From an uncultured Myxococcales bacterium (lineage in GTDB: Bacteria; Myxococcota_A; UBA9042): a stretch of 52,604 nucleotides of DNA. A model generated the notes under the pieces. The model did not search any database. It saw only the letters and a program-made list of their open reading frames with translations, and was not told where the DNA came from. The stretch lies in the NCBI GenBank assembly GCA_903955385.1, contig CAJBNH010000010.1, positions 1 through 52,604 on the forward strand, in the 5' to 3' direction. Numbering within the stretch: position 1 is the first letter of the stretch; the number at the start of each line of letters is the position of its first letter. Of the stretch, positions 12,481 through 43,959 are shown one piece after another. Made by a program: the position numbers and the translations under genes.

Positions 12481-15400
12481 CTACCGCACGAAGATGTAGC
12501 CCCAGTCGGCCTTGACGCTCTTGTCGCCGGCGTCGCCGCCGCAACCCGCCGCTGCGCCCGCCGGCATCGCCGGGTCGATGCCGCAAACGTTGCCAGCGCC
12601 GCCGAAACCGATGCGCGAGTCGGGCGAGCCGCAGTCGTTCTGCTCGTTGCCGAGAATGCCGATGCGGACCTTGGCCCAGCCTTCCTGGGTCCAGTTGTTC
12701 AGGCCCTCACGGTTGCAGTTGACCTGCATGGTCGAGCCTGCGACCAGGTTCTTCCACGCGCCGCGCCCGATCGCCGTCGTGGGCTTGAACACGCCGTCCA
12801 GCAGAGCCGCTCGCAGCGACGTGGCGACGTGGGCCATCACGACCCAGTTCGTCGTGCCGGCCAGCTTCATGCCCAACCGCAGCTCGGTGTAGCCAACGGT
12901 CCAGAAGCTCTCCAGCTTGGCCTCGGAGTCCTCGAAGCCGGGCGCGGTGGCATTGAGGCCGACGGTGTTCGTCCAGTACGGCGCGTCGTACACAAAGGTG
13001 GCCGCCTTGCCGTTCATGCGCATCACCAACGTCCAGCCGCCGCCGTCCGAGGTCATGTCGCAGTACGCTTGGAACATCTTGCCTGCCCCCGCCTTGCCGT
13101 CCGGGTCCAGGTAGTACACGCCGTCCTTGGCCGCGGGCAGGGTCTCGAGAATCGCCTTGCACGAGGTCGCGGGGTTCAGGTCGCTGCCGATCGAGCACTG
13201 GCCCGAGAAGCACATGCCCGCCTTGCCGCACACGCTGCCGTCCACGACCGCCGGGTGCAGGCACCCTTGGACCTTGTCGCAGCTGTCGGCCGTGCAGGGG
13301 TTGCCGTCGTCGCAGCTGATGTCGCTGCCGCCGCACTTGCCCACCGTGCAAATGTCCTTGTCGGTGCAGGCAGATCCGTCATCACACGCGATCGAGACGT
13401 TGATGGCCTGGCAGCCCTTGACGCTGTCGCAGTAGTCGACGGTGCAGAAGTTGCCGTCGTCGCACTTCAGCTCCGGTCCGGCGCACTTGCCGGCGCCGCA
13501 AATGTCCTTGCCCGTGCACGCGTTGCCGTCGTCGCAGGCCGCGGTGTTGGCCTTGTAGACGCAGCCGGCGACCTTGTCGCACGAGTCGTCGGTGCAGCCG
13601 TTGCCGTCGTTGCACACGGTCAGCTTGCCGGGTACGCACGAGCCGTTCACGCAACCGTCCCCCACCGTGCACACGCTGCCGTCGTCGCACGGCAGGGCCC
13701 AGTTGATCGAGACGCAGCCCTTCTGCGAGTCGCACTGGTCGATGGTGCAAGGGTTGCTGTCGTTGCAGTCCTTGGTGCCGGTGGTGGCGCACTTGCCGTC
13801 CTTGCACGCGTCGCCAAGGGTGCAGACGTCGTTGTCGGTGCACGCGGCGCTGTTGGGAGCAAACACGCAGCCGGTGGCCTTGTCGCACGAGTCGTCGGTG
13901 CAGCCGTTGCCATCGACGCAGGTCTTGGCCGCGCCGGACTGGCACGCGCCGCCAGCGCAGGTATCGCCCACCGTGCACGCGTTGCCGTCCTCGCACGACT
14001 GCGTGTTGGGCTCTGAGGCACAACCCATGATGGGATCGCAGGAATCCGTGGTGCACAGGTTGCTGTCATCGCAGCTCTTGGCGGCGCCAGAGATGCACGA
14101 TCCGCCCGCACACGCATCGGACTGCGTGCACGCGTTGCCGTCATCGCAAGGCGTGGTGTTCTGCGTAAACGTGCAGCCCTTGAGCTTGTCACACGCATCG
14201 TCGGTGCAGCTGTTGCCGTCCGCGCAGACCGTCGGCTGGCCTGAGGTGCACGCGCCAGCAGAGCAGACGTCGCCGGTGGTGCAGGCGTCGCCGTCGGTGC
14301 ACGGCTCGGTATTGATCACGTTCTTGCAGCCCTCGGCGGGGTCGCAGGTCTCGGTGGTGCACGGGTTGTTGTCGTCGCAAGCGGGTGGGATGCCCGGCAC
14401 GCAGGCGCCGTCCTTGCAGATGTCTGCCTGGGTGCACGCGTTGTTGTCGTTGCACTCCGAGGTGTTGGGCGTGAAGGTGCAGCCGGTGGCCGGGGTGCAG
14501 CCGTCGTCGGTGCAGCTGTTGCCGTCGTCGCACTTGGCCGCCGCGCCGGACTTGCACGCGCCATCCGCGCAGCCATCGCCGGTGGTGCAGGCGTCGCCGT
14601 CGTCGCAGGGCTGGGTGTTGGGCGTATTCTCGCAACCCAACGTAGGATCGCAGGAATCCGTCGTGCAGGCATTCTTGTCGTTGCAGTCCTTGGCCGCACC
14701 GGGCTTGCAGAAACCGCCGCCGCACGCGTCGCCTTCGGTGCAGACGTTGTCGTCGGTGCACAGGCCTGCATTCGCGACGTTGGTGCAACCGGTGGCCTTG
14801 TCGCAGCTGTCGTCGGTGCAAGGATTGCCGTCGTTGCAGTTGGCGGGCGCGCCGGGGGCGCAAGCGCCGTTGGCGCAGATGTCTCCGGTGGTGCAAGCGT
14901 CGCCGTCGCTGCAGGGAAGGGCCGCCGCCGCGTTCTGGCACCCCTTGAGGGCATCACAGTTGTCGCTGGTGCAGGGGTTGTCGTCGTCGCACGTCTTCTG
15001 CGCGCCGCCGACGCACGCGCCGTCCTTGCACGCATCGCCGTCGGTGCACACGCTGCCGTCGTCACAGGGGTCGGTCAGGTTCTGCGTGACGCAGCCCGCC
15101 GTCTGGTCGCAGCTGTCCTTGGTGCAAACCTTGCCGTCGTCGCACGCCTTGGCCGCGCCCGCCTGGCAGGTGCCGTCCTTGCACGCGTCGCCGGTGGTGC
15201 AGGCGTTGCCGTCCTCGCAGGGAGCCGAATTCGCCGCCGTGGTGCAGCCCTTGACCGGATCGCAGCCGTCATTGGTGCACGGATTGCCGTCGTCGCAGCC
15301 CTTGGCCTTGCCCGGCACGCACGAGCCCTCTGCGCAGGCATCGCCGACGGTGCAGACACTGCCGTCGTCGCAGGGATCGTTGGTGGCGACATTCACGCAA

Positions 15401-16413
15401 CCGGTCTTGGAATCGCAGGCGTCCTTGGTGCACAAGTTGTTGTCGTCGCAGACCTTGGGCGTGCCGGTCGTGCAGACGCCGTCCTTGCACGCATCGTTGC
15501 TGTTGCAAACGTCGCCGTCATCGCACGCACCCGCGGTGGGGGCATGGGCGCAACCGGTTTGGGGGTCGCAGGTGTCCGAGGTGCAAACGTTGGCGTCGTC
15601 GCACGCGTTGACCGCGGCCGCCTTGCAAGTGCCCGACTGGCAAGTGGTCGCGTCGGTGCACGCGTTCGAGTCGTCGCAGGGTACGCCGTCCAGCTTGGCT
15701 TGCGTCTCGCAGGCACCGGCCACGCAGGCCACGACCTTGCAGACGTCGGCGTTGGGAGCGCAATCGGCGTCGACCACGCACTCAGGGGAAACATCTGGAG
15801 TCGAAGTATCTGGATCCACAACGGTATCCGGATTGATCACGGTGTCGGGTGCGACGTCGGGAACCACTGCATCGGGGACGACCGCATCCGGGTCCACCGT
15901 GCCGTCAGGGGCAACGTCAGGGACCACCGCATCCGGGTCCACCGTGCCGTCAGGGGCAACGTCCGGGATCACTGCGTCGGGGTCCACGACGCCATCGGGA
16001 ACGGTCGCGTCCGGGTCCACCACCGCGTCGGCGGACGAGTCCGTGTCGGCATCGGGCGCACTGTCGACAAGCGCGTCGGTCGCTGCATCCGGGTCCGTCG
16101 TCGTGTCGGTCGCCGCATCGGGGTCGGCATCCGGGTCGGCGTCAGGCCCCACTTCGGGAAGCGCATCTACGGTGGACGTCACGTCCTCTGGGGCATCGCC
16201 CACACCATCCTCAGCGTCGGGGGCATCGGTCAGCACGGTGTCCAGCGAGTCCAGGTCAACCGCGTCGGAGATCACAAGGTCGGCCGTGGCGTCGACTGAG
16301 GGCTCGTCAGATGGCCCGACGACGGTCGAGTCGCCACCGCAGGCGGTGAGCCACAAGGCTGCCACAACCGCGAAGGGTGCGAATCGACAGGGGAGAATGG
16401 ACGTGTTGCGCAT
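12481..16413 (-). CDS. Giant Cys-repeat lipoprotein with Asp-rich stalk and fibrinogen-like C-terminal domain
   Basis: This protein has 1310 residues; ATG 16413 follows AGGAG. The signal ends in lipobox LTAC (Cys 25). Residues about 30-208 are a highly acidic low-complexity linker rich in DPDA, PDV and TDPD steps. From about residue 210 to 1070 comes a Cys-rich array in which two 18-residue-core units alternate: type B (CDDGxACTxGDxCxxGxC) and type A (CDDGNxCTxDxCDxxxGC). I count 16 B and 16 A units, six Cys in each pair-half pattern, resembling Dictyostelium CTDC-type repeats seen in other surface proteins. The last 230 residues contain YCDMTSDGGGWTLVMR and later GFGGAGNVCG, a fibrinogen-related domain that usually binds sugars or acetylated ligands. 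It is probably an outer-surface adhesin on a stalk; export to the outer leaflet is inferred. Confidence 0.88.
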   Translation of the reverse strand: MRNTSILPCRFAPFAVVAALWLTACGGDSTVVGPSDEPSVDATADLVISDAVDLDSLDTVLTDAPDAEDGVGDAPEDVTSTVDALPEVGPDADPDADPDAATDTTTDPDAATDALVDSAPDADTDSSADAVVDPDATVPDGVVDPDAVIPDVAPDGTVDPDAVVPDVAPDGTVDPDAVVPDAVVPDVAPDTVINPDTVVDPDTSTPDVSPECVVDADCAPNADVCKVVACVAGACETQAKLDGVPCDDSNACTDATTCQSGTCKAAAVNACDDANVCTSDTCDPQTGCAHAPTAGACDDGDVCNSNDACKDGVCTTGTPKVCDDNNLCTKDACDSKTGCVNVATNDPCDDGSVCTVGDACAEGSCVPGKAKGCDDGNPCTNDGCDPVKGCTTAANSAPCEDGNACTTGDACKDGTCQAGAAKACDDGKVCTKDSCDQTAGCVTQNLTDPCDDGSVCTDGDACKDGACVGGAQKTCDDDNPCTSDNCDALKGCQNAAAALPCSDGDACTTGDICANGACAPGAPANCNDGNPCTDDSCDKATGCTNVANAGLCTDDNVCTEGDACGGGFCKPGAAKDCNDKNACTTDSCDPTLGCENTPNTQPCDDGDACTTGDGCADGACKSGAAAKCDDGNSCTDDGCTPATGCTFTPNTSECNDNNACTQADICKDGACVPGIPPACDDNNPCTTETCDPAEGCKNVINTEPCTDGDACTTGDVCSAGACTSGQPTVCADGNSCTDDACDKLKGCTFTQNTTPCDDGNACTQSDACAGGSCISGAAKSCDDSNLCTTDSCDPIMGCASEPNTQSCEDGNACTVGDTCAGGACQSGAAKTCVDGNGCTDDSCDKATGCVFAPNSAACTDNDVCTLGDACKDGKCATTGTKDCNDSNPCTIDQCDSQKGCVSINWALPCDDGSVCTVGDGCVNGSCVPGKLTVCNDGNGCTDDSCDKVAGCVYKANTAACDDGNACTGKDICGAGKCAGPELKCDDGNFCTVDYCDSVKGCQAINVSIACDDGSACTDKDICTVGKCGGSDISCDDGNPCTADSCDKVQGCLHPAVVDGSVCGKAGMCFSGQCSIGSDLNPATSCKAILETLPAAKDGVYYLDPDGKAGAGKMFQAYCDMTSDGGGWTLVMRMNGKAATFVYDAPYWTNTVGLNATAPGFEDSEAKLESFWTVGYTELRLGMKLAGTTNWVVMAHVATSLRAALLDGVFKPTTAIGRGAWKNLVAGSTMQVNCNREGLNNWTQEGWAKVRIGILGNEQNDCGSPDSRIGFGGAGNVCGIDPAMPAGAAAGCGGDAGDKSVKADWGYIFVR

Positions 16414-16450
16414 AGTTGGACTCCTGTGCTGCGGAACGCGGTCCGTGCGT

Positions 16451-35922: not shown

Positions 35923-37509
35923 ATGGCGAATGCGAGTTGGTCCATTTCCGTCTGGCTGCGTCTTTTGACCGTCGCTGCCTTGGCCGCGCTGACCGTCGCG
36001 TGCAGCGACAGCGGCTCTGGGGGCGAGACCATCACGCTGCCCGACACGACCCAGTCGGACCTGACGGGTCAGGACCTGACCGCGGACACCGTGCAGCCCG
36101 ACACCGTCGCGGACGCCCAGACCGACGACACCGCGGTGCCGGATGTGACCCCCGACGTGGAACCGGATGTGGAACCCGATGTTGCGGGCGAAGTGACCCC
36201 GGACGTGCAGCCGGACGTGGTCCCCGACGTCGAACCCGAAGTGGTCGAAGACATCGTCGACGTGCCGGATACGGTCGAAGTGGTCGAGGACGTGCAACCC
36301 GACATCCAGCCCGACGTGCAGCCCGACGTGCAGCCCGACATCGTCGACACGGCCGACACCCAAGAGCCGACGTGGGGCACGTTTACGCCGTCTGGCTGCA
36401 CCAAATTCGTCAACACCAACGGCGACGGCACCGTCAACCCCTTCATCAGCCCCGCGCGCGACGGCCAGTTCTACGTCAGCTACGTGGCCAAGGGCGGCAA
36501 CCTGATGCTCGCTTGGGAGGACCCGACGACGTGCAAGACGGTCGTTGCGCCGATGCAGGTCAACAAGACCGCGGGCGCCGTGTACTACTGGGGCGCCGTG
36601 GCGGTCGTCTCGGACAAGGCCGGCAACTTCTATGCCGTCTGGGAGGGCGCGTTCGGCACCGACGCCGAGATCTCGTTCGCGTGGTCCAAGACGGGCAAGG
36701 ACTTCAGCGCGCCCATCGAGCTCGTGTCGACCAGCACCAACGGCCAGGACCCCGCCCTGTGGGTGCCCGCGTCGGGCGAAGTGCATGCGGCCTGGCGCGG
36801 CCACCACGCGTTCGAGCCGTGGTACGACCCCTACTACGCGTTCAACGGCAGCGTGTTCAGCGGCGGTAGCTTCTCGCCGGGCGTGCTGGTCCACGCCGAC
36901 GCCGAGCAGGACGACCAGGTGGCGATCGGCGGCGACTCGATGGGCAACCTGTATCTGGCCTGGCAGACCTTCGACGGCGACATCTTCATCGCCCGCTCGA
37001 CCGACGAGGGCAAGACGTGGAGCGCCCCCAAGAAGGTCAACGACGAGACCGGCAAGGCCAACGTCGGCAAGGCCAGCTTCATGGTCATCACCCCCGACGA
37101 CCGCGTGGTGCTGATGTGGTCCGACTCGCGCACCGACAGCGAGGGCGATGTGTACGCCGACTCGAGCGCCGACGGCCTGACCTGGGGCGTGGACGTCATG
37201 GTCAACGACAACACCGCGCGGTACCAAGAGGATCCGTCGATGGTGGTGGCGACGGCGACGGCCTGCAAGGGCGCGATTTACGCGGTCTGGCAGGACATGC
37301 GCAACAAGTCGAGCTACGACATCTACGCCGCCCGGTCGACCGACGGCGGCAAGACGTGGTCCGCGAACGAGGCCATCGCCAAGGACGTGGAAGGCGACGA
37401 GATGAACCCTGCCATCGCCGTTGACCAGTCCTGCAAGGTCGGCGTGGCGTGGCGCGATGCGACGAAGAACGACTCGTTCGACATCGGCTCGACCTACTTC
37501 ACCTGGTGA
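35923..37509 (+). CDS. Asp-box (BNR/sialidase-like) lipoprotein with acidic PDV linker
   Basis: This 528-residue protein starts at ATG 35923 after GCGAGG. Lipobox TVAC (Cys 27). Residues about 40-148 are an acidic low-complexity stalk of D-x-x-PDV steps. The remainder is a six-blade-like beta-propeller with Asp-box motifs: RSTDEGKTWSAP (about 365), SSADGLTWGVDV (about 420) and RSTDGGKTWSAN (about 470), plus partial ones such as WSKTGKDFSAP. Asp-box proteins include sialidases and other glycosidases, but the Arg triad of sialidases is not obvious, so I call only the fold. Probably a surface protein on a stalk. Three large lipoproteins follow one another here on the same strand. Confidence 0.82.
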   Translation: MANASWSISVWLRLLTVAALAALTVACSDSGSGGETITLPDTTQSDLTGQDLTADTVQPDTVADAQTDDTAVPDVTPDVEPDVEPDVAGEVTPDVQPDVVPDVEPEVVEDIVDVPDTVEVVEDVQPDIQPDVQPDVQPDIVDTADTQEPTWGTFTPSGCTKFVNTNGDGTVNPFISPARDGQFYVSYVAKGGNLMLAWEDPTTCKTVVAPMQVNKTAGAVYYWGAVAVVSDKAGNFYAVWEGAFGTDAEISFAWSKTGKDFSAPIELVSTSTNGQDPALWVPASGEVHAAWRGHHAFEPWYDPYYAFNGSVFSGGSFSPGVLVHADAEQDDQVAIGGDSMGNLYLAWQTFDGDIFIARSTDEGKTWSAPKKVNDETGKANVGKASFMVITPDDRVVLMWSDSRTDSEGDVYADSSADGLTWGVDVMVNDNTARYQEDPSMVVATATACKGAIYAVWQDMRNKSSYDIYAARSTDGGKTWSANEAIAKDVEGDEMNPAIAVDQSCKVGVAWRDATKNDSFDIGSTYFTW

Positions 37510-37702
37510 CGCGCCCGGCCAACGCCGACCATGCCCCCCGTCAGGCCCGGGGAATTCGCCCCGCCGTCGCCCTCGGCCCATCGACACAAACGGGCCAGTG
37601 TGGCAGCGTCTCTCGCGGCCTGAGAACCTGACGGTTTCTCTCTTGGCCACCCACTCTTCCCTGCGCCGCCCCTCGATCGGCAGGGGCACCGGCGAGGTCC
37701 TG

Positions 37703-40612
37703 ATGCGACTCCAATTCCTTGTGCCTGCCCTGTTTGTCCTGCCGCTCGCGCTGACTGCCGTCGGCTGCGGAGACACCAAGGCGAGCGACGCTGTCACCGG
37801 TTGTCCGTCCGGCGAGCAGGACCTCGACGGCGACGGCGCCTGCCTTCCCGACTGTGCCACCGCCAACCTGACCTGCCAGCATGGCGCCTGCTCTGACGTC
37901 AGCGGCCGCGCCCTGTGCACTTGCGACTCGGGCTACGCGGGGACCACGTGCTCCGTCTGCGCCCCCACGTGGCAGGACAAGGACGGCAACGGCACCTGCA
38001 AGCCCGGCTGCGAGATTGCCAAGGTCTCGTGCACGCACGGCTTCTGCTCGGACAAGACCGGCACCGCCCAGTGCGCGTGCAGCGAAGGCTACGCAGGCAC
38101 GATCTGCGACCGCTGCGACAGCGGCTGGCAGGACGCGGACGGCGACGGCATTTGTAAGCGCGCGTGCAGCACGGCGGGGTTGCAGTGCGGTCAGGGCTAC
38201 TGCTCATCCGAGACCGGCGTGGTCCACTGCAACTGCGCCGCCGGCTACACTGGCGATTCGTGTGAGAAGTGCGCGACCGGCTTCCAGGACAAGAACCTCG
38301 ACGGCATCTGCAAGCCCACGTGCGCCAAGGCCAAGTTGAAGTGCACCACCAACGGCGCCTGCTCCGACGAGTCCGGTACCGCCCAGTGCGAGTGCAAGAA
38401 CGGCTACGCCGGAGTCACGTGCACCAGCTGCGCGACCGGCTACCAGGACAAGAACAGCGACGGCGTCTGCGAGCCCGCGTGCGTGGTGGGCCAGTGCGGT
38501 CATGGCTCGTGTATGGACACGACGGGGGAAGCTGTCTGCTCATGCGCCAAGGGCTATCAGGGCGCGAAGTGCCTGGTCTGCGCGGCCGGCTACCAGGACA
38601 AGGATGGCAACGGCGAGTGTCTACCCGACTGCTCGCAGGCCAACCTCGGGTGCCTGAACGGCGCGTGCAGCGACCTGTCCGGCACGGCGAAGTGCGCGTG
38701 CGACCTGGGGTATGCCGGCAACGCCTGCATGGGCTGCGCGGTCGGCTATCAGGACAAGGACGGCAACGGCGTGTGCCAGCCCGGTTGCACCGAGACGACG
38801 TGCACCAAGGGCTTGTGCTCGGACGCAAGCGGCATCGTGGTCTGCACCTGCCCCGTCGGCTACACCGGCCCCAACTGCTCGACTTGCGCCGTCGGCTATC
38901 AGGACGTGGACGGCGACGGCGTATGCAACGCCGGATGCACCCTTGCGAATCTGGGGTGCAAGCACGGCGCGTGCAGTGAGCAATCCGGCACGGCCGTCTG
39001 CCAGTGCCCCACGGAGTACGTCGGCGCCAAGTGCGAGACCTGTGCCCCCGGAAACCAGGACGCGGACGGCAACGGCACGTGCGCGCCCACCTGCGACACG
39101 GCCAAGCTCGCCTGCGTCAAGGGTGCCTGCTCCGACGCGTCGGGCAAGGCAACGTGCGAGTGCGACGAAGGCTACGGCGGCGACCTTTGCGAGACATGTG
39201 CCCAAGGCTGGCAGGACAACGACCAGAACGGCGCGTGCCTGCCCGCGTGCTCGACCGCCGGCCTGGACTGCGGCCACGGTCAGTGCGCAGACACCACCGG
39301 CAAGGCCGCTTGCGGGTGCGAGACGGGCTACGAGGGCAATACCTGCAAGGCCTGCGTCGCCGGCTACCAGGATCTGGACGAGGACGGCACCTGCTCGCCC
39401 ACCTGCGACACCGCCAACCTCGCCTGCGTCTTCGGCAAGTGCTCGGATTCCGATGGCACCGCCGACTGCTTCTGCGACGACACCCACGCGGGCACGCTGT
39501 GCGCCGAGTGCAAGGCCGGACTGCAGGACAAGGACTCGAACGGCTCGTGCACGGCAGACTGCAGCACCGCAAACCTGACTTGCAACAAGGGCATGTGCGC
39601 GGACACGACCGGCACTGCGCTTTGCGTGTGCGACGCCGGCTACAAGGGCGAGACGTGCACCGCGTGCAACACCGGCTGGCAGGACAACGACGACGACGGC
39701 ATCTGCGAGTTCGACTGCGCATCCGCGGCCTTGGACTGCGGCGAGGGCGCCTGCTCGGACGCCACCGGCCAGGCGCTGTGCGTGTGCAACCAGGGCTACC
39801 AGGACAACGACAAGAACGGCAAGTGCACGGCGGGATGCGGCGTGGCCCAGCTCAGCTGCCCCGAGGGCGAGACGTGCAACGACGCGTCGGGCGTCGCCGG
39901 TTGCCACAACCCGTGGCCGAACACCTGCGCCACCGTCAAGGGCGTGACCCCCAACCCGCAAGACGCCGAATACACGCTGTTCTTTGCCAACGACCCCACG
40001 CGTCCCTGGCAGGCCTGGTGCGACGACGTCGCGGGAACACCGACGGAGTACCTGTCCGTCGCGCCTGAGAGCAACTTCAGCACCTGCGAAGGCGGCGGCG
40101 GTTATCCTGCCGGCAAGGTGGTGACGACGTGGAGTCGCGTGCGCATCGACCCCGTGACGCTGGTCGTGACGGTGTCCGACTACGCCTTTGCCACCTCGAC
40201 CGGCGCCATCGCCGCCACCCCGCCCATCGCCAAGGTGCCGTACGCGTCGGCCTGCAACTGCACGTTGGACAAGGGCGCGGCCGCGCGCATCGATCTGTCC
40301 GGCACGCCGTTCGAGCTGGCCGACACGTTCTGCTCCATCGGCTTCCTCGCCTTTGGCGGCATCACCCCGGCCAACGGCCAAGGCCAGACGCTAGACCTGA
40401 CGGGTGGCGGCTTCTGCGGCACGATGGGCCCCTGCACCCAGGGCGTGACGCCGAACCTGCAGCTCTCGATCCTGCCGTGCCCCAACCACACGCAAGGCGC
40501 GGACTGCGGCACCTGCACCCCCGACGCCACGGCGTGCGGCGGAGCGTGCGTGGTCTGCCCGGACCAGTTGCCCTTGGACCCGCAGACTTGCGAGTGCCAG
40601 TACTCCACCTGA
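37703..40612 (+). CDS. EGF-repeat lipoprotein with a GON-like C-terminal domain
   Basis: Start at ATG 37703 after GGCGAGG gives 969 residues; the open frame begins at 37421 but overlaps the previous gene. Lipobox AVGC (Cys 22). Twelve complete copies of a unit of about 48 residues follow: an EGF-like module ending CxxGYxGxxC, then CxxGYQDxDxNGxCxPxC, in which the D-x-D-x-N-G part looks calcium-binding. A thirteenth, incomplete copy ends the array. Residues about 742-916 resemble the GON domain of animal ADAMTS proteins: PWQAWCDDVAGTPTEYLSV, NFSTCEGGG, VPYASACNCTLDKGAAARID and LSGTPFELAD. A last Cys-rich tail ends the protein. It is likely a rigid surface adhesin. The GON assignment is by pattern, not by search. 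Confidence 0.83.
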   Translation: MRLQFLVPALFVLPLALTAVGCGDTKASDAVTGCPSGEQDLDGDGACLPDCATANLTCQHGACSDVSGRALCTCDSGYAGTTCSVCAPTWQDKDGNGTCKPGCEIAKVSCTHGFCSDKTGTAQCACSEGYAGTICDRCDSGWQDADGDGICKRACSTAGLQCGQGYCSSETGVVHCNCAAGYTGDSCEKCATGFQDKNLDGICKPTCAKAKLKCTTNGACSDESGTAQCECKNGYAGVTCTSCATGYQDKNSDGVCEPACVVGQCGHGSCMDTTGEAVCSCAKGYQGAKCLVCAAGYQDKDGNGECLPDCSQANLGCLNGACSDLSGTAKCACDLGYAGNACMGCAVGYQDKDGNGVCQPGCTETTCTKGLCSDASGIVVCTCPVGYTGPNCSTCAVGYQDVDGDGVCNAGCTLANLGCKHGACSEQSGTAVCQCPTEYVGAKCETCAPGNQDADGNGTCAPTCDTAKLACVKGACSDASGKATCECDEGYGGDLCETCAQGWQDNDQNGACLPACSTAGLDCGHGQCADTTGKAACGCETGYEGNTCKACVAGYQDLDEDGTCSPTCDTANLACVFGKCSDSDGTADCFCDDTHAGTLCAECKAGLQDKDSNGSCTADCSTANLTCNKGMCADTTGTALCVCDAGYKGETCTACNTGWQDNDDDGICEFDCASAALDCGEGACSDATGQALCVCNQGYQDNDKNGKCTAGCGVAQLSCPEGETCNDASGVAGCHNPWPNTCATVKGVTPNPQDAEYTLFFANDPTRPWQAWCDDVAGTPTEYLSVAPESNFSTCEGGGGYPAGKVVTTWSRVRIDPVTLVVTVSDYAFATSTGAIAATPPIAKVPYASACNCTLDKGAAARIDLSGTPFELADTFCSIGFLAFGGITPANGQGQTLDLTGGGFCGTMGPCTQGVTPNLQLSILPCPNHTQGADCGTCTPDATACGGACVVCPDQLPLDPQTCECQYST

Positions 40613-40638
40613 TCCGGCAACACGGCGTGGAGGTCGCG

Positions 40639-40920
40639 ATGGTCCAACGGCGCACCCAGATGCACGTGGTGGTCAAGGGGCAAGTCCAAGGCGTGGGCTA
40701 TCGCTTCAGCACGCAGCAACAAGCCAAGCGCTGGGGTCTGCTGGGCTGGGTGCGCAACGCGGCAGACGGAGGCGTCGAGGCCGTGTTTCAGGGCCCTGAG
40801 GACGTCGTGGCATCGATGGTCGCCTGGTGCGAGCGCGGCCCCCTGCACGCGTCGGTCGAGAGCGTTCTGGCCACCCGGCAAGCGCTCGAGGCATTTCAGG
40901 GTTTTGACGTCAGGCACTGA
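40639..40920 (+). CDS. acyP: Acylphosphatase
   Basis: The product has 93 residues; ATG 40639 follows GGAGG. It matches the family in length and motifs: KGQVQGVGYRFSTQQQAK contains the phosphate-binding loop and catalytic Arg, GLLGWVRNAADGGVEAV the catalytic Asn, and the C-terminal half the expected beta strand (VEAVFQGPEDVV). The enzyme hydrolyses acyl phosphates such as acetyl or carbamoyl phosphate in the cytoplasm. It lies 26 bases after the EGF/GON gene but is unlikely to be related in function; a readthrough transcript is possible. Confidence 0.93.
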   Translation: MVQRRTQMHVVVKGQVQGVGYRFSTQQQAKRWGLLGWVRNAADGGVEAVFQGPEDVVASMVAWCERGPLHASVESVLATRQALEAFQGFDVRH

Positions 40921-41241: not shown

Positions 41242-43959
41242 ATGGCAGCGATCCGCGTCAGGTGGCCGCGACCGGCCGTCTCGGCATTTGCCGTTTGCAT
41301 CGCGATGTTGGCAGGTTGCGAGTCGGCAACCGGCGGTTCCGGTGCGGTCGTGCAAGACACGACTGCAGCTCCGGACACCGTGGACGCAACCGACACGCCC
41401 GAACCGACCGACACGGTTGCAGACACCGCGCCCTGCCAGGGTCTGGACTGTCCGTGTACCGACGTGACGACATGCGGAACGGCCGCGCCTTGCGAAAAGC
41501 GCGCTTGCGAGCAGGGCAAGTGCACGGTGGTTCCCAAGCTGTGCGACGACGGCGACGAATGCACGGCCGACCAGTGCGACCCCGTGACGGGCGAGTGCAC
41601 GGCCAAGGCGATTCCGCAGTGCGGCCCCAAGCCGGTGTACGCCACGACCTTCAGTTGCAAGACCGGCGACGCCAAGGATTGGAAGCTCGACGCGGCCGTC
41701 GGCAAGGGACCCGGCTGGGCCATCGACGCTTCGCCCGCGCTGCCCGGCGCGTTCTCGCCCGACTGCTCGCTGAACTTCAACAACGGCACGGACTTTCAGT
41801 GCGTCGGCGAGACGCCCGGTCCCAAGATGCGCGCGGTGTCGCCGCTGATCGACGCGTCGGCGCTGCCCGCCAAGGCGCCGCTTTCGCTGACGTTCCGCCT
41901 GGCCGGCAAGTGGGAGGCGGGGCAGTACGACGAGCTCGTGGTCGAGATCGGTCCCGACCCGACGCAGACGGCACCGATCGCCAGCCTGGACCCGCCGGGC
42001 GGCGATTGGGAGAAAGTTACGCTCGACCTCGCGAAATATGCGGGCACCAAGTTCCACGTCGCCTTCGTGTTCTTCTCAGAGGACTGTCAGGTCAACAACG
42101 GCGCCGGCCCCTTCATCGACGATCTGGCCGTGGTCGACACGACGTGCAAGTCAGACGCCGCGTGCGACGACGGCAACGACTGCACCATCGACTCGTGCCA
42201 CAAGGCGTCGGGCAAGTGCATCAAGGCCTTGCTGCCCGCGGGCACCGAATGCGCCACGAACAACAAGTGCCTGTCTGCGGCCACCTGCAGCGCCGACGGC
42301 AAGTGCATCGGCGTCGCCAAGGTGTGCGCGCTGACCAGCCTGGCCCCCTGCGAGGCGGCCGCATGCAACACCACGACGGGCAATTGCGAGGCCGCGCCGG
42401 CGCCCGACGGGGCCCAGTGTCTCGACGGCAACCCGTGCACCGGGGTGGGCACGTGCGACAAGGGCAAGTGCACCACCACGCCCATCGGCAACGGCCTGCC
42501 CTGCGACGACCCGGTCAAGTGCCTGTTCCTGGGCGCCTGCAAGGACTCCGTGTGCGTGGGCGGCAAGCAGGCTCCCGACGGCATGCCCTGCCAGGACGGC
42601 GACGCCTGCACCGAGCTGTCGAAGTGCAAGAGCGGCAAGTGCGAGGCCGGACCGGCCGGCTGTGACGACGGCAACGCCTGCACGCAAGACGCCTGCCTGC
42701 CTGGCAAGGGCTGCAGCCACGCCGCGACGAACGACGATGCGGCGTGCGACGACGGCAGCGCCTGCTCGACCAAGGACCGCTGCAAGTCGGGACAATGCCT
42801 GGGCGCGCCCGTCAGTGGCACCTGCGACGATGGCAACGCATGCACCCAGCAAGACGCGTGCGGACCCGACGGCAAGTGCGCCGGATTTCCCGCGCCTGGC
42901 CTTTGCGACGACGCCAACGGCTGCACCTACGACGCCTGCGTGGTCAAGACGGGCGAATGCATCCACAACCTGCTCGACGGTGCGCCCTGCGACGACGGAT
43001 CGGCGTGCACCGTCGAGACGTGCGTGGCAGGCGCGTGCAAGGCCAAGCCCGCCGCCGACGGCGGGCCGTGCACCGACGGCGACGCGTGCTCGACCGGCGA
43101 CAAGTGCGCCCAGGGGCAGTGCAAAGGCAGCGCCACGGCCGCAGACGGACAGGCCTGCGACGACGGCAGCGGCTGCACCAGCAACGACAAGTGCATGGGC
43201 GGCAAGTGCGACGGCAGCCCGGTGGCCGGCCTTTGCGACGACGCCAACTCGTGCACCGCCGACGCCTGCCAGAAGGGCACCAACCAGTACGAGCCCTTTA
43301 CCTGCACCCACGCCGCCATCGGCGACGGCGGCGCCTGCGACGACGGCGACGCCTGCACCAGCAGCGACAAGTGCGCGGCCGGCGCGTGCAAGGGAGCGCT
43401 GACCAGCGCGTGCACGGTCCACTTTGACGACCCGTTCGCCTGCGACAAGAACCTGGGCTGGACGTTCGCGCCGGCCGCAGACGACGCCAAGGGCATCCCC
43501 GGTTGGGCCATCGACGGCACGCCCGCCAAGCCCGCCGCGTTCTCGGGTGCGTGCTCGCTGAACCTGAACAACGGCATCAACTACGACTTGAAGGGACCCG
43601 GCGGCGCGTCGCAAGCGGTCGCGGCGGGCACGGTGGGTCCTGCGATCGATGTTCCGGCGGGGGTGGCAGAGGCGCAGTTGGTCTTCCAGAGCTGGTACGA
43701 CGTCGAGGACTATCAGAACTTCGACATCCGCTATGTCGACTTCTCGGTCGACGGCTTCAAGACCGTGGACTCGGCGACGTTGTCCAACGGGGCGGCCAAC
43801 GCCAAGTCATGGAAGAAGGTGACGCTGCCGGTGACCAAGTACGCCGGCAAGAAGCTGCAGATCCGCTTCCGCTTCGAGTCGATGGACGCCCTGAACAACG
43901 CGGGTGCCGGCTGGTTCGTCGACGACGTGCAGGTGCGGTCGTCCAAGGCGTCCAACTAG
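41242..43959 (+). CDS. Cys-repeat lipoprotein flanked by two related jelly-roll domains
   Basis: ATG 41242 follows a G-rich tract; 905 residues. Lipobox LAGC (Cys 26), then an acidic Thr/Asp-Pro linker (about 30-65). A domain at about 133-296 (PGWAIDASPALPGAFSPDCS, LNFNNGTDF, FIDDLAVVDT) is repeated at about 726-905 (PGWAIDGTPAKPAAFSGACS, LNLNNGINY, WFVDDVQVRS). Both look like MAM- or immune-inhibitor-type beta sandwiches. Between them about 15 units of CDDGxACTxxxxC type occur, one such unit preceding the first domain, akin to those in the 1310-residue lipoprotein. The twin domains are clearly duplicates. Likely a surface binding protein; the ligand is unknown. Confidence 0.84.
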   Translation: MAAIRVRWPRPAVSAFAVCIAMLAGCESATGGSGAVVQDTTAAPDTVDATDTPEPTDTVADTAPCQGLDCPCTDVTTCGTAAPCEKRACEQGKCTVVPKLCDDGDECTADQCDPVTGECTAKAIPQCGPKPVYATTFSCKTGDAKDWKLDAAVGKGPGWAIDASPALPGAFSPDCSLNFNNGTDFQCVGETPGPKMRAVSPLIDASALPAKAPLSLTFRLAGKWEAGQYDELVVEIGPDPTQTAPIASLDPPGGDWEKVTLDLAKYAGTKFHVAFVFFSEDCQVNNGAGPFIDDLAVVDTTCKSDAACDDGNDCTIDSCHKASGKCIKALLPAGTECATNNKCLSAATCSADGKCIGVAKVCALTSLAPCEAAACNTTTGNCEAAPAPDGAQCLDGNPCTGVGTCDKGKCTTTPIGNGLPCDDPVKCLFLGACKDSVCVGGKQAPDGMPCQDGDACTELSKCKSGKCEAGPAGCDDGNACTQDACLPGKGCSHAATNDDAACDDGSACSTKDRCKSGQCLGAPVSGTCDDGNACTQQDACGPDGKCAGFPAPGLCDDANGCTYDACVVKTGECIHNLLDGAPCDDGSACTVETCVAGACKAKPAADGGPCTDGDACSTGDKCAQGQCKGSATAADGQACDDGSGCTSNDKCMGGKCDGSPVAGLCDDANSCTADACQKGTNQYEPFTCTHAAIGDGGACDDGDACTSSDKCAAGACKGALTSACTVHFDDPFACDKNLGWTFAPAADDAKGIPGWAIDGTPAKPAAFSGACSLNLNNGINYDLKGPGGASQAVAAGTVGPAIDVPAGVAEAQLVFQSWYDVEDYQNFDIRYVDFSVDGFKTVDSATLSNGAANAKSWKKVTLPVTKYAGKKLQIRFRFESMDALNNAGAGWFVDDVQVRSSKASN

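What the first reader, a model, noticed from the sequence alone, without database searches (positions are those of the whole stretch)
37703..40612. EGF/calcium-site repeats capped by an animal-like GON domain in a bacterial lipoprotein
Twelve complete EGF-like modules alternate with a D-x-D-x-N-G-C linker that could bind calcium. The C-terminal segment matches the GON layout known from ADAMTS9/20 of animals (Cys-rich, EYLSV, VPY-A-C-C, DLSGTPFEL). Such a domain on a bacterial stalk suggests either ancient sharing or transfer, and a role in adhesion or prey contact.
Basis: partly seen in the sequence, partly recalled or inferred. Interest (0 to 1): 0.55.

Follow-up and report, generated by a model that had tools for sequence, protein, structure and literature searches.

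The report
Bacterial EGF-stalk lipoprotein with GON cap
This bacterial surface protein has a long EGF-type stalk ending in a GON domain, a module best known from animal matrix enzymes that turns out to be carried by a scattered set of bacteria as well.

Summary
The gene (37703-40612, 969 aa, lipoprotein-like start) has 12 complete plus 2 partial EGF-like modules, 14 D-x-[DN]-x-[DN]-G-x-C loops (shuffle mean 0.02) and a C-terminal segment that passes Pfam's GON cut-off when scanned alone (7.2e-9, 36.3 bits vs 22.6). A whole-protein scan missed it. The segment models confidently (pLDDT 93.4).

It is not a one-off import from animals. PF08685 matches 22 of 377 genomes of this phylum (Myxococcota); in three other phyla sampled, only the genome chosen as centre matched. 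Sixty-nine distinct bacterial GON domains form a deep tree. Stalk-plus-GON recurs in three other genomes. NCBI already names a Deinococcus gene 'GON domain-containing protein'.

One extra result: the first ~40 residues of GON match the N-terminal cap of fibrinogen-type domains (HHalign 96%, score 62 vs at most 15 in 60 shuffles); the rest does not.

Most likely a surface binding protein: lipid anchor, disulphide stalk, GON tip. Ligand and prey role are unproven; direction of any animal-bacterial transfer could not be tested.

The parts
37703..40612 (+). whole gene, 969 aa
   Evidence: open frame with ATG and GAGG at 37694-37697
37703..37768 (+). export signal and lipobox, residues 1-22 (LTAVGC), lipid-anchor cysteine at residue 22
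   Evidence: read from the translation; fits the relaxed lipobox pattern recalled from PROSITE; no signal predictor was run on it
37802..39904 (+). stalk, residues 34-734: 12 complete and 2 partial eight-cysteine EGF-like modules, period 50-53 aa
   Evidence: model pLDDT 91.0 for three modules; Foldseek hits to Notch EGF and laminin LE modules
37820..39826 (+). span of the 14 D-x-[DN]-x-[DN]-G-x-C loops, residues 40-708
39923..40480 (+). GON domain, residues 741-926
   Evidence: PF08685 7.2e-9; alignment A1; model pLDDT 93.4, pTM 0.88
39923..40051 (+). N-terminal cap of GON, residues 741-783, homologous to the N-terminal cap of fibrinogen-type domains
   Evidence: HHalign of the bacterial families; weak tenascin match
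40481..40609 (+). cysteine-rich tail after GON, residues 927-969
   Evidence: read from the translation

Best explanation
It is an outer-surface binding protein. A lipid-modified cysteine anchors the N-terminus to a membrane; twelve-plus laminin/Notch-type EGF modules, each carrying an acidic loop that may take up calcium, form a stiff disulphide-rich rod; the rod holds a GON domain away from the cell, where it binds an extracellular partner (glycan, matrix or another cell). Shown here: the domain layout, the statistical GON match, the confident model of cap and stalk, and the recurrence of the layout. Inferred: lipid anchoring, outward display, calcium uptake, and that GON binds something. 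The partner is unknown.
For: Lipobox-like start and a lipobox by one pattern in 20 of 35 uncut Myxococcota-side GON proteins against 42 of 666 other open frames of the same loci. GON within 60 residues of the C-terminus in 36 of 42 such proteins. Stalk modules match Notch EGF and laminin LE structures (41 PDB matches at E<=0.001). The same kind of stalk bears other tips in relatives: a LamG-like one in L099 and a propeller-like one in L101 (read by eye; not scanned). Other GON proteins join GON to surface parts: SLH, fn3 and Ig in Paenibacillus, Laminin_G_3 and Ig in Hyalangium. No enzyme family was found in the protein.
Against: No ligand, localisation or expression data. Actinomycetota GON proteins are small and lack the lipobox pattern (0 of 10), so GON need not be a tip on an anchor. 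15 of 35 Myxococcota-side proteins lack the lipobox pattern. No conserved neighbouring gene gives a functional hint. In C. elegans the GON domain alone acts in secretion from ER to Golgi (PMC4517882, abstract and passages), not in adhesion.
Confidence: 0.6

Rival explanations
1. Recent horizontal transfer: the GON domain was taken from an animal and fused to an EGF stalk, itself animal-derived.
For: GON is filed as a domain found only in ECM proteins of the human proteome (PMC4224354, section 17 read); EGF modules resemble Notch and laminin.
Against: 22 of 377 phylum genomes carry GON, and the bacterial tree is deep, with a 10-row actinomycete clade at 100/97 support. Rows of A1 share 25-44% identity with the window. 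GON sits in many bacterial architectures. GC of the gene region matches the window (0.68).
Confidence: 0.07
2. Convergence: the C-terminal segment only resembles GON because of cysteines and short motifs.
For: Modest score (36.3 bits), partial best stretch, missed in the whole-protein scan.
Against: Over the curated cut-off in two separate searches; relatives aligned to it score far higher, e.g. 98.4 bits for L083 and 70.5 for L024; conserved positions run along the whole domain.
Confidence: 0.03
3. The GON tip is not a binder of outside partners but a structural or assembly part, for example helping export or folding of partner proteins, as GON-1 is proposed to do in worm secretion.
For: GON alone rescues secretion defects in C. 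elegans gon-1 mutants (PMC4517882, abstract and passages).
Against: The worm role is at the ER, which bacteria lack; the bacterial proteins have export signals and surface modules; no conserved partner gene was seen beside GON genes.
Confidence: 0.15
4. A prey-contact adhesin of a predatory lifestyle.
For: The phylum includes predators (PMC11509652, abstract seen in the listing); GON is enriched there against three other phyla sampled.
Against: Also in Actinomycetota, Anaerolineae and Paenibacillus; within the own family it is absent from all 21 other genomes searched; lifestyle of this organism unknown.
Confidence: 0.15

Closest known systems
GON domain, PF08685 (animal ADAMTS9, ADAMTS20 and GON-1)
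   Same: passes the Pfam cut-off; C-terminal place in a secreted multidomain protein
   Different: no metalloprotease or thrombospondin repeats were found in this protein; preceded by EGF modules; lipoprotein-like; bacterial
Bacterial GON proteins of Myxococcota, e.g. L096 (G161), L097 and L098 (G089), L095 (G062)
   Same: export signal, EGF-like modules with QDNDxDGxC loops, C-terminal GON
   Different: those have fewer loops (1-3 against 14) and three of the four loci have tandem GON
Bacterial fibrinogen-like YCDxxxxGGGW domains, NF040941
   Same: N-terminal cap homologous (HHalign 96-98%)
   Different: no GGGW motif in GON; the remainder shows no similarity (0.3%, score 13.3 against a shuffle maximum of 14.7)
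Laminin-type EGF (LE) modules, PF00053, and Notch EGF
   Same: eight cysteines per module, EGF_laminin over the cut-off, Foldseek hits to 1klo, 1npe and Notch EGF
   Different: the loop between the last two cysteines carries D-x-[DN]-x-[DN]-G; TM-scores are low over several modules because module angles differ

Membership tests
GON, PF08685 | score over the curated cut-off of 22.6 bits | tested here: met
   36.3 bits for the segment alone, 25 bits in the genome search; missed in the whole-protein scan
GON, PF08685 | domain complete along the profile | tested here: inconclusive
   best stretch 87-189 of 199, a second stretch counted but not located; relatives that align over the whole domain (A1) reach 3-187 (L003)
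GON, PF08685 | same fold as an animal GON domain | not testable with these tools
   no GON chain turned up among solved structures by sequence and Foldseek gave no match at E<=0.001
ADAMTS9/20-type protease | metalloprotease and thrombospondin type 1 repeats | tested here: not met
   Pfam scan lists only EGF-type families and one sub-threshold Ig-like hit
Fibrinogen-related domain | N-terminal cap | tested here: met
   HHalign 97.8% over 37 columns for cap against cap; shuffled controls max score 15.1 in 60
Fibrinogen-related domain | remaining domain with GGGW motif | tested here: not met
   HHalign 0.3% for the rest, within shuffles; no GGGW in the sequence
EGF-like, laminin type | EGF cysteine pattern with eight cysteines | tested here: met
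   PF07974, PF00008 and PF00053 over cut-off; modules listed
DxDxDG calcium loop (EF-hand type) | acidic ligands at 1, 3, 5 and glycine at 6 | tested here: met
   14 of 14 loops by the search pattern
DxDxDG calcium loop (EF-hand type) | acidic ligand at position 12 | tested here: not met
   position 12 is cysteine in 12 of the 14 loops listed; in the other cases the following residue frame also gives no D/E at 12 (read)
Bacterial lipoprotein | lipobox with cysteine after a hydrophobic signal | tested here: met
   LTAVGC at residues 17-22, read; lipidation itself not testable

The most novel reading that the evidence does not exclude
GON is a module of bacterial origin, built by fusing a fibrinogen-type N-terminal cap to a separate beta domain and spread as the tip of stalked lipoproteins, from which the animal ADAMTS9/20/GON-1 domain descends by transfer into early animals.
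Probability: 0.25. Interest if true: 0.65.

Novelty: new variant of a known kind. Interest (0 to 1): 0.42.

Why it matters
GON is treated in print as an animal extracellular-matrix domain of obscure function. A spread, diverse bacterial family offers small natural versions for structure and binding work and a comparison set for where the animal domain came from. The fibrinogen-cap link gives the first hint here of how the domain is put together. The window gene shows a modular design, one stalk with exchangeable tips, that could be tested for surface binding in a group rich in predators.

Tried and rejected
Single-sequence search of solved structures with the GON segment: nothing at E<=1. NCBIfam: no family. 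Foldseek against PDB for GON: best 8fna, a tenascin fibrinogen domain, E 0.34, so not evidence by itself; VIA-align best Z 3.2 (GH98), judged noise; viral structures: nothing at E<=0.001. Viral contigs: 59 stretches matched a pattern, none confirmed. Phages: no match. Neighbour genes of 44 GON loci: shared clusters did not point to a conserved partner; the largest is mostly the GON gene itself and the groups of proteins built by single linkage were not annotated. Mesorhizobium locus L094 matched the query by tblastn but its genome gave no Pfam GON match, so I do not count it as GON. Stalk alignment A4 came out of register and was dropped for A5. The idea that all stalk-GON proteins share one origin is unsettled: the own row is unresolved in the tree. 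Literature on bacterial GON: searches 'GON domain'+bacteria (2 papers, neither bacterial by title and abstract), 'GON domain' (23, listing), 'PF08685' (1), 'GON domain'+fibrinogen (0); two searches on myxobacterial EGF or fibrinogen-like domains gave nothing on point. The lipobox background uses six-frame open frames, some not genes, so the contrast is rough. In one search proteins cut at the 3' end or with a short GON match were dropped, and N-terminally cut ones left out of the lipobox count.

Full report
What is there. The gene at 37703-40612 (+) codes for 969 residues. It starts with a hydrophobic segment ending LTAVGC, which reads as a lipobox. Then come 12 complete modules of 50-53 residues and two partial ones, marked by 14 loops D-x-[DN]-x-[DN]-G-x-C (2000 shuffles: mean 0.023, maximum 2). 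Modules share 38-62% identity as protein and at most 75% as DNA, so they are old duplicates rather than a fresh expansion. Pfam EGF_2 (9.6e-13), EGF (1.3e-9) and EGF_laminin (4.8e-6) pass their cut-offs. Each complete module has eight cysteines, and the acidic loop lies between the last two, as loop d does in laminin EGF modules (loop naming recalled). A three-module model built from the window's own modules has pLDDT 91.0 and pTM 0.57; two of the five models were much poorer than the best two or three (means 91.0, 90.5, 78.8, 76.0, 72.3). Its Foldseek matches are Notch EGF arrays, nidogen-bound laminin and laminin LE modules, 41 at E<=0.001.

The GON domain. Residues 741-926 alone match PF08685 at 7.2e-9, 36.3 bits against a cut-off of 22.6. 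The whole-protein scan missed it, as it did for other cysteine-rich GON proteins such as L004 and L017, so annotation pipelines may overlook this class; the likely reason, HMMER's composition filter, is an inference. AlphaFold2 with 20 bacterial relatives gives pLDDT 93.4 and pTM 0.88. No solved structure matches it clearly.

Where GON occurs in bacteria. It was found in 3 of 52 genomes of the class, the window's own included, and in 22 of 377 of the phylum. The phylum is Myxococcota: the hit in G230 has the same contig number and coordinates as that in Plesiocystis pacifica SIR-1. None of 14 control genomes rang. Samples of three other phyla gave 1 of 296, 1 of 201 and 1 of 299, the one being the genome used as centre each time. 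A scan of genome contigs with alignment A3 returned 44 loci out of 80 pattern matches: mostly Myxococcota, also Actinokineospora, Actinoallomurus, Umezawaea, Nonomuraea, Actinomadura and Actinophytocola, Thioploca, two Anaerolineae and one Paenibacillus. The scan used two short patterns, so it is a lower bound. Of ten of these genomes searched with PF08685, nine matched; the Mesorhizobium one did not.

Tree and architectures. From 85 long domain rows, 69 distinct ones were kept for the tree. Ten of 11 actinomycete rows form one branch (100/97), the two Anaerolineae another (100/100). Deeper forks are weak (17 of 66 inner branches open) and the window's row is unresolved. The family has been in bacteria long enough to diversify; how long relative to animals is not shown. 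Stalk-like EGF modules with one to three acidic loops and a C-terminal GON also occur in G062, G161 and G089. Other architectures: three GON in tandem (L005, L023), GON with Laminin_G_3 and Ig (Hyalangium) and with SLH, fn3 and Ig (Paenibacillus). In the counted set GON lies within 60 residues of the C-terminus in 36 of 42 Myxococcota-side proteins, 7 of 11 actinomycete and 3 of 5 others; the lipobox pattern is in 20 of 35, 0 of 10 and 0 of 5, against 42 of 666 background frames.

Exchangeable tips. Ten of 44 relatives searched, the own genome included, have sequence similar to the first six modules. In G028 (L099) and G035 (L101) the same kind of module array is followed by a LamG-like and a propeller-like region (by eye). 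So within the class the stalk seems to be a general carrier and GON one of its tips. In the own genome the stalk query hits only this gene.

Fibrinogen link. A profile of bacterial GON domains hits tenascin fibrinogen domains weakly (best 0.0075). I therefore collected bacterial fibrinogen-like domains with NF040941: 44 of 77 phylum genomes carry it and the own genome has 35 matches. My motif filter kept 19 domains from 17 of the 25 loci returned; eight loci were dropped. HHalign of GON against these gives 96.0%, E 4.2e-9, score 62.3 over 41 columns; 60 column shuffles reached at most 15.1. Cap against cap gives 97.8%; the rest against the rest gives 0.3%, score 13.3, against a maximum of 14.7 in 40 shuffles; the stalk alignment used as a negative control gives 0.1%. 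So GON shares the N-terminal cap of fibrinogen-type domains and nothing detectable beyond it. By sequence alone this could be descent of the cap or exchange of a cap between domains.

How it most likely works. Lipid anchor, stiff rod, binding tip, as set out under Best explanation. Length of the rod (some 30 nm if modules span 2.5-3 nm each, as recalled for laminin) is an estimate. The acidic loops could bind calcium at the junctions and stiffen the rod, but they lack the twelfth-position acid of EF-hand loops, so the site, if real, is completed otherwise.

What is known. One paper lists GON among domains found only in ECM proteins of the human proteome and examined only eukaryotes (PMC4224354, section 17 read). 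In C. [quoted passage not shown]). None of the searches named under Tried and rejected turned up a paper on bacterial GON, but NCBI annotation uses 'GON domain-containing protein' for a gene on a Deinococcus plasmid. So the occurrence in bacteria is known to databases; the survey and the cap link appear not to be in the papers searched.

Verdict. A real, well-read feature; a new architectural variant of an under-described bacterial branch of the GON family. Surprise is moderate.

Noticed in passing
window 12484-16449 (-), match at 13024-13164: Another lipoprotein-like frame of 1322 codons with a fibrinogen-like YCDxxxxGGGW domain; the own genome has 35 such matches.
   Followed up: partly
window 41245-43956 (+): Cysteine-rich protein with Dicty_CTDC repeats and an InhA-type MAM domain, next but one to the GON gene.
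   Followed up: no
window 35923-37509 (+): Lipoprotein-like start, a V-x-P-D-rich spacer and BNR repeats (PF13088 over cut-off), just upstream of the GON gene; an acylphosphatase lies downstream at 40630-40917.
   Followed up: no
L099 (G028:C421) and L101 (G035:C6): Similar EGF stalks followed by LamG-like and propeller-like regions in place of GON, suggesting a stalk with exchangeable tips.
   Followed up: partly
L004 and L017 proteins: Cysteine-rich GON proteins in which a whole-protein hmmscan reports no GON although the six-frame search does, as for the window protein.
   Followed up: partly
L005 and L023 (G346:C16): Two neighbouring genes each with three GON domains in tandem; equivalent copies pair across the genes in the tree.
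   Followed up: partly
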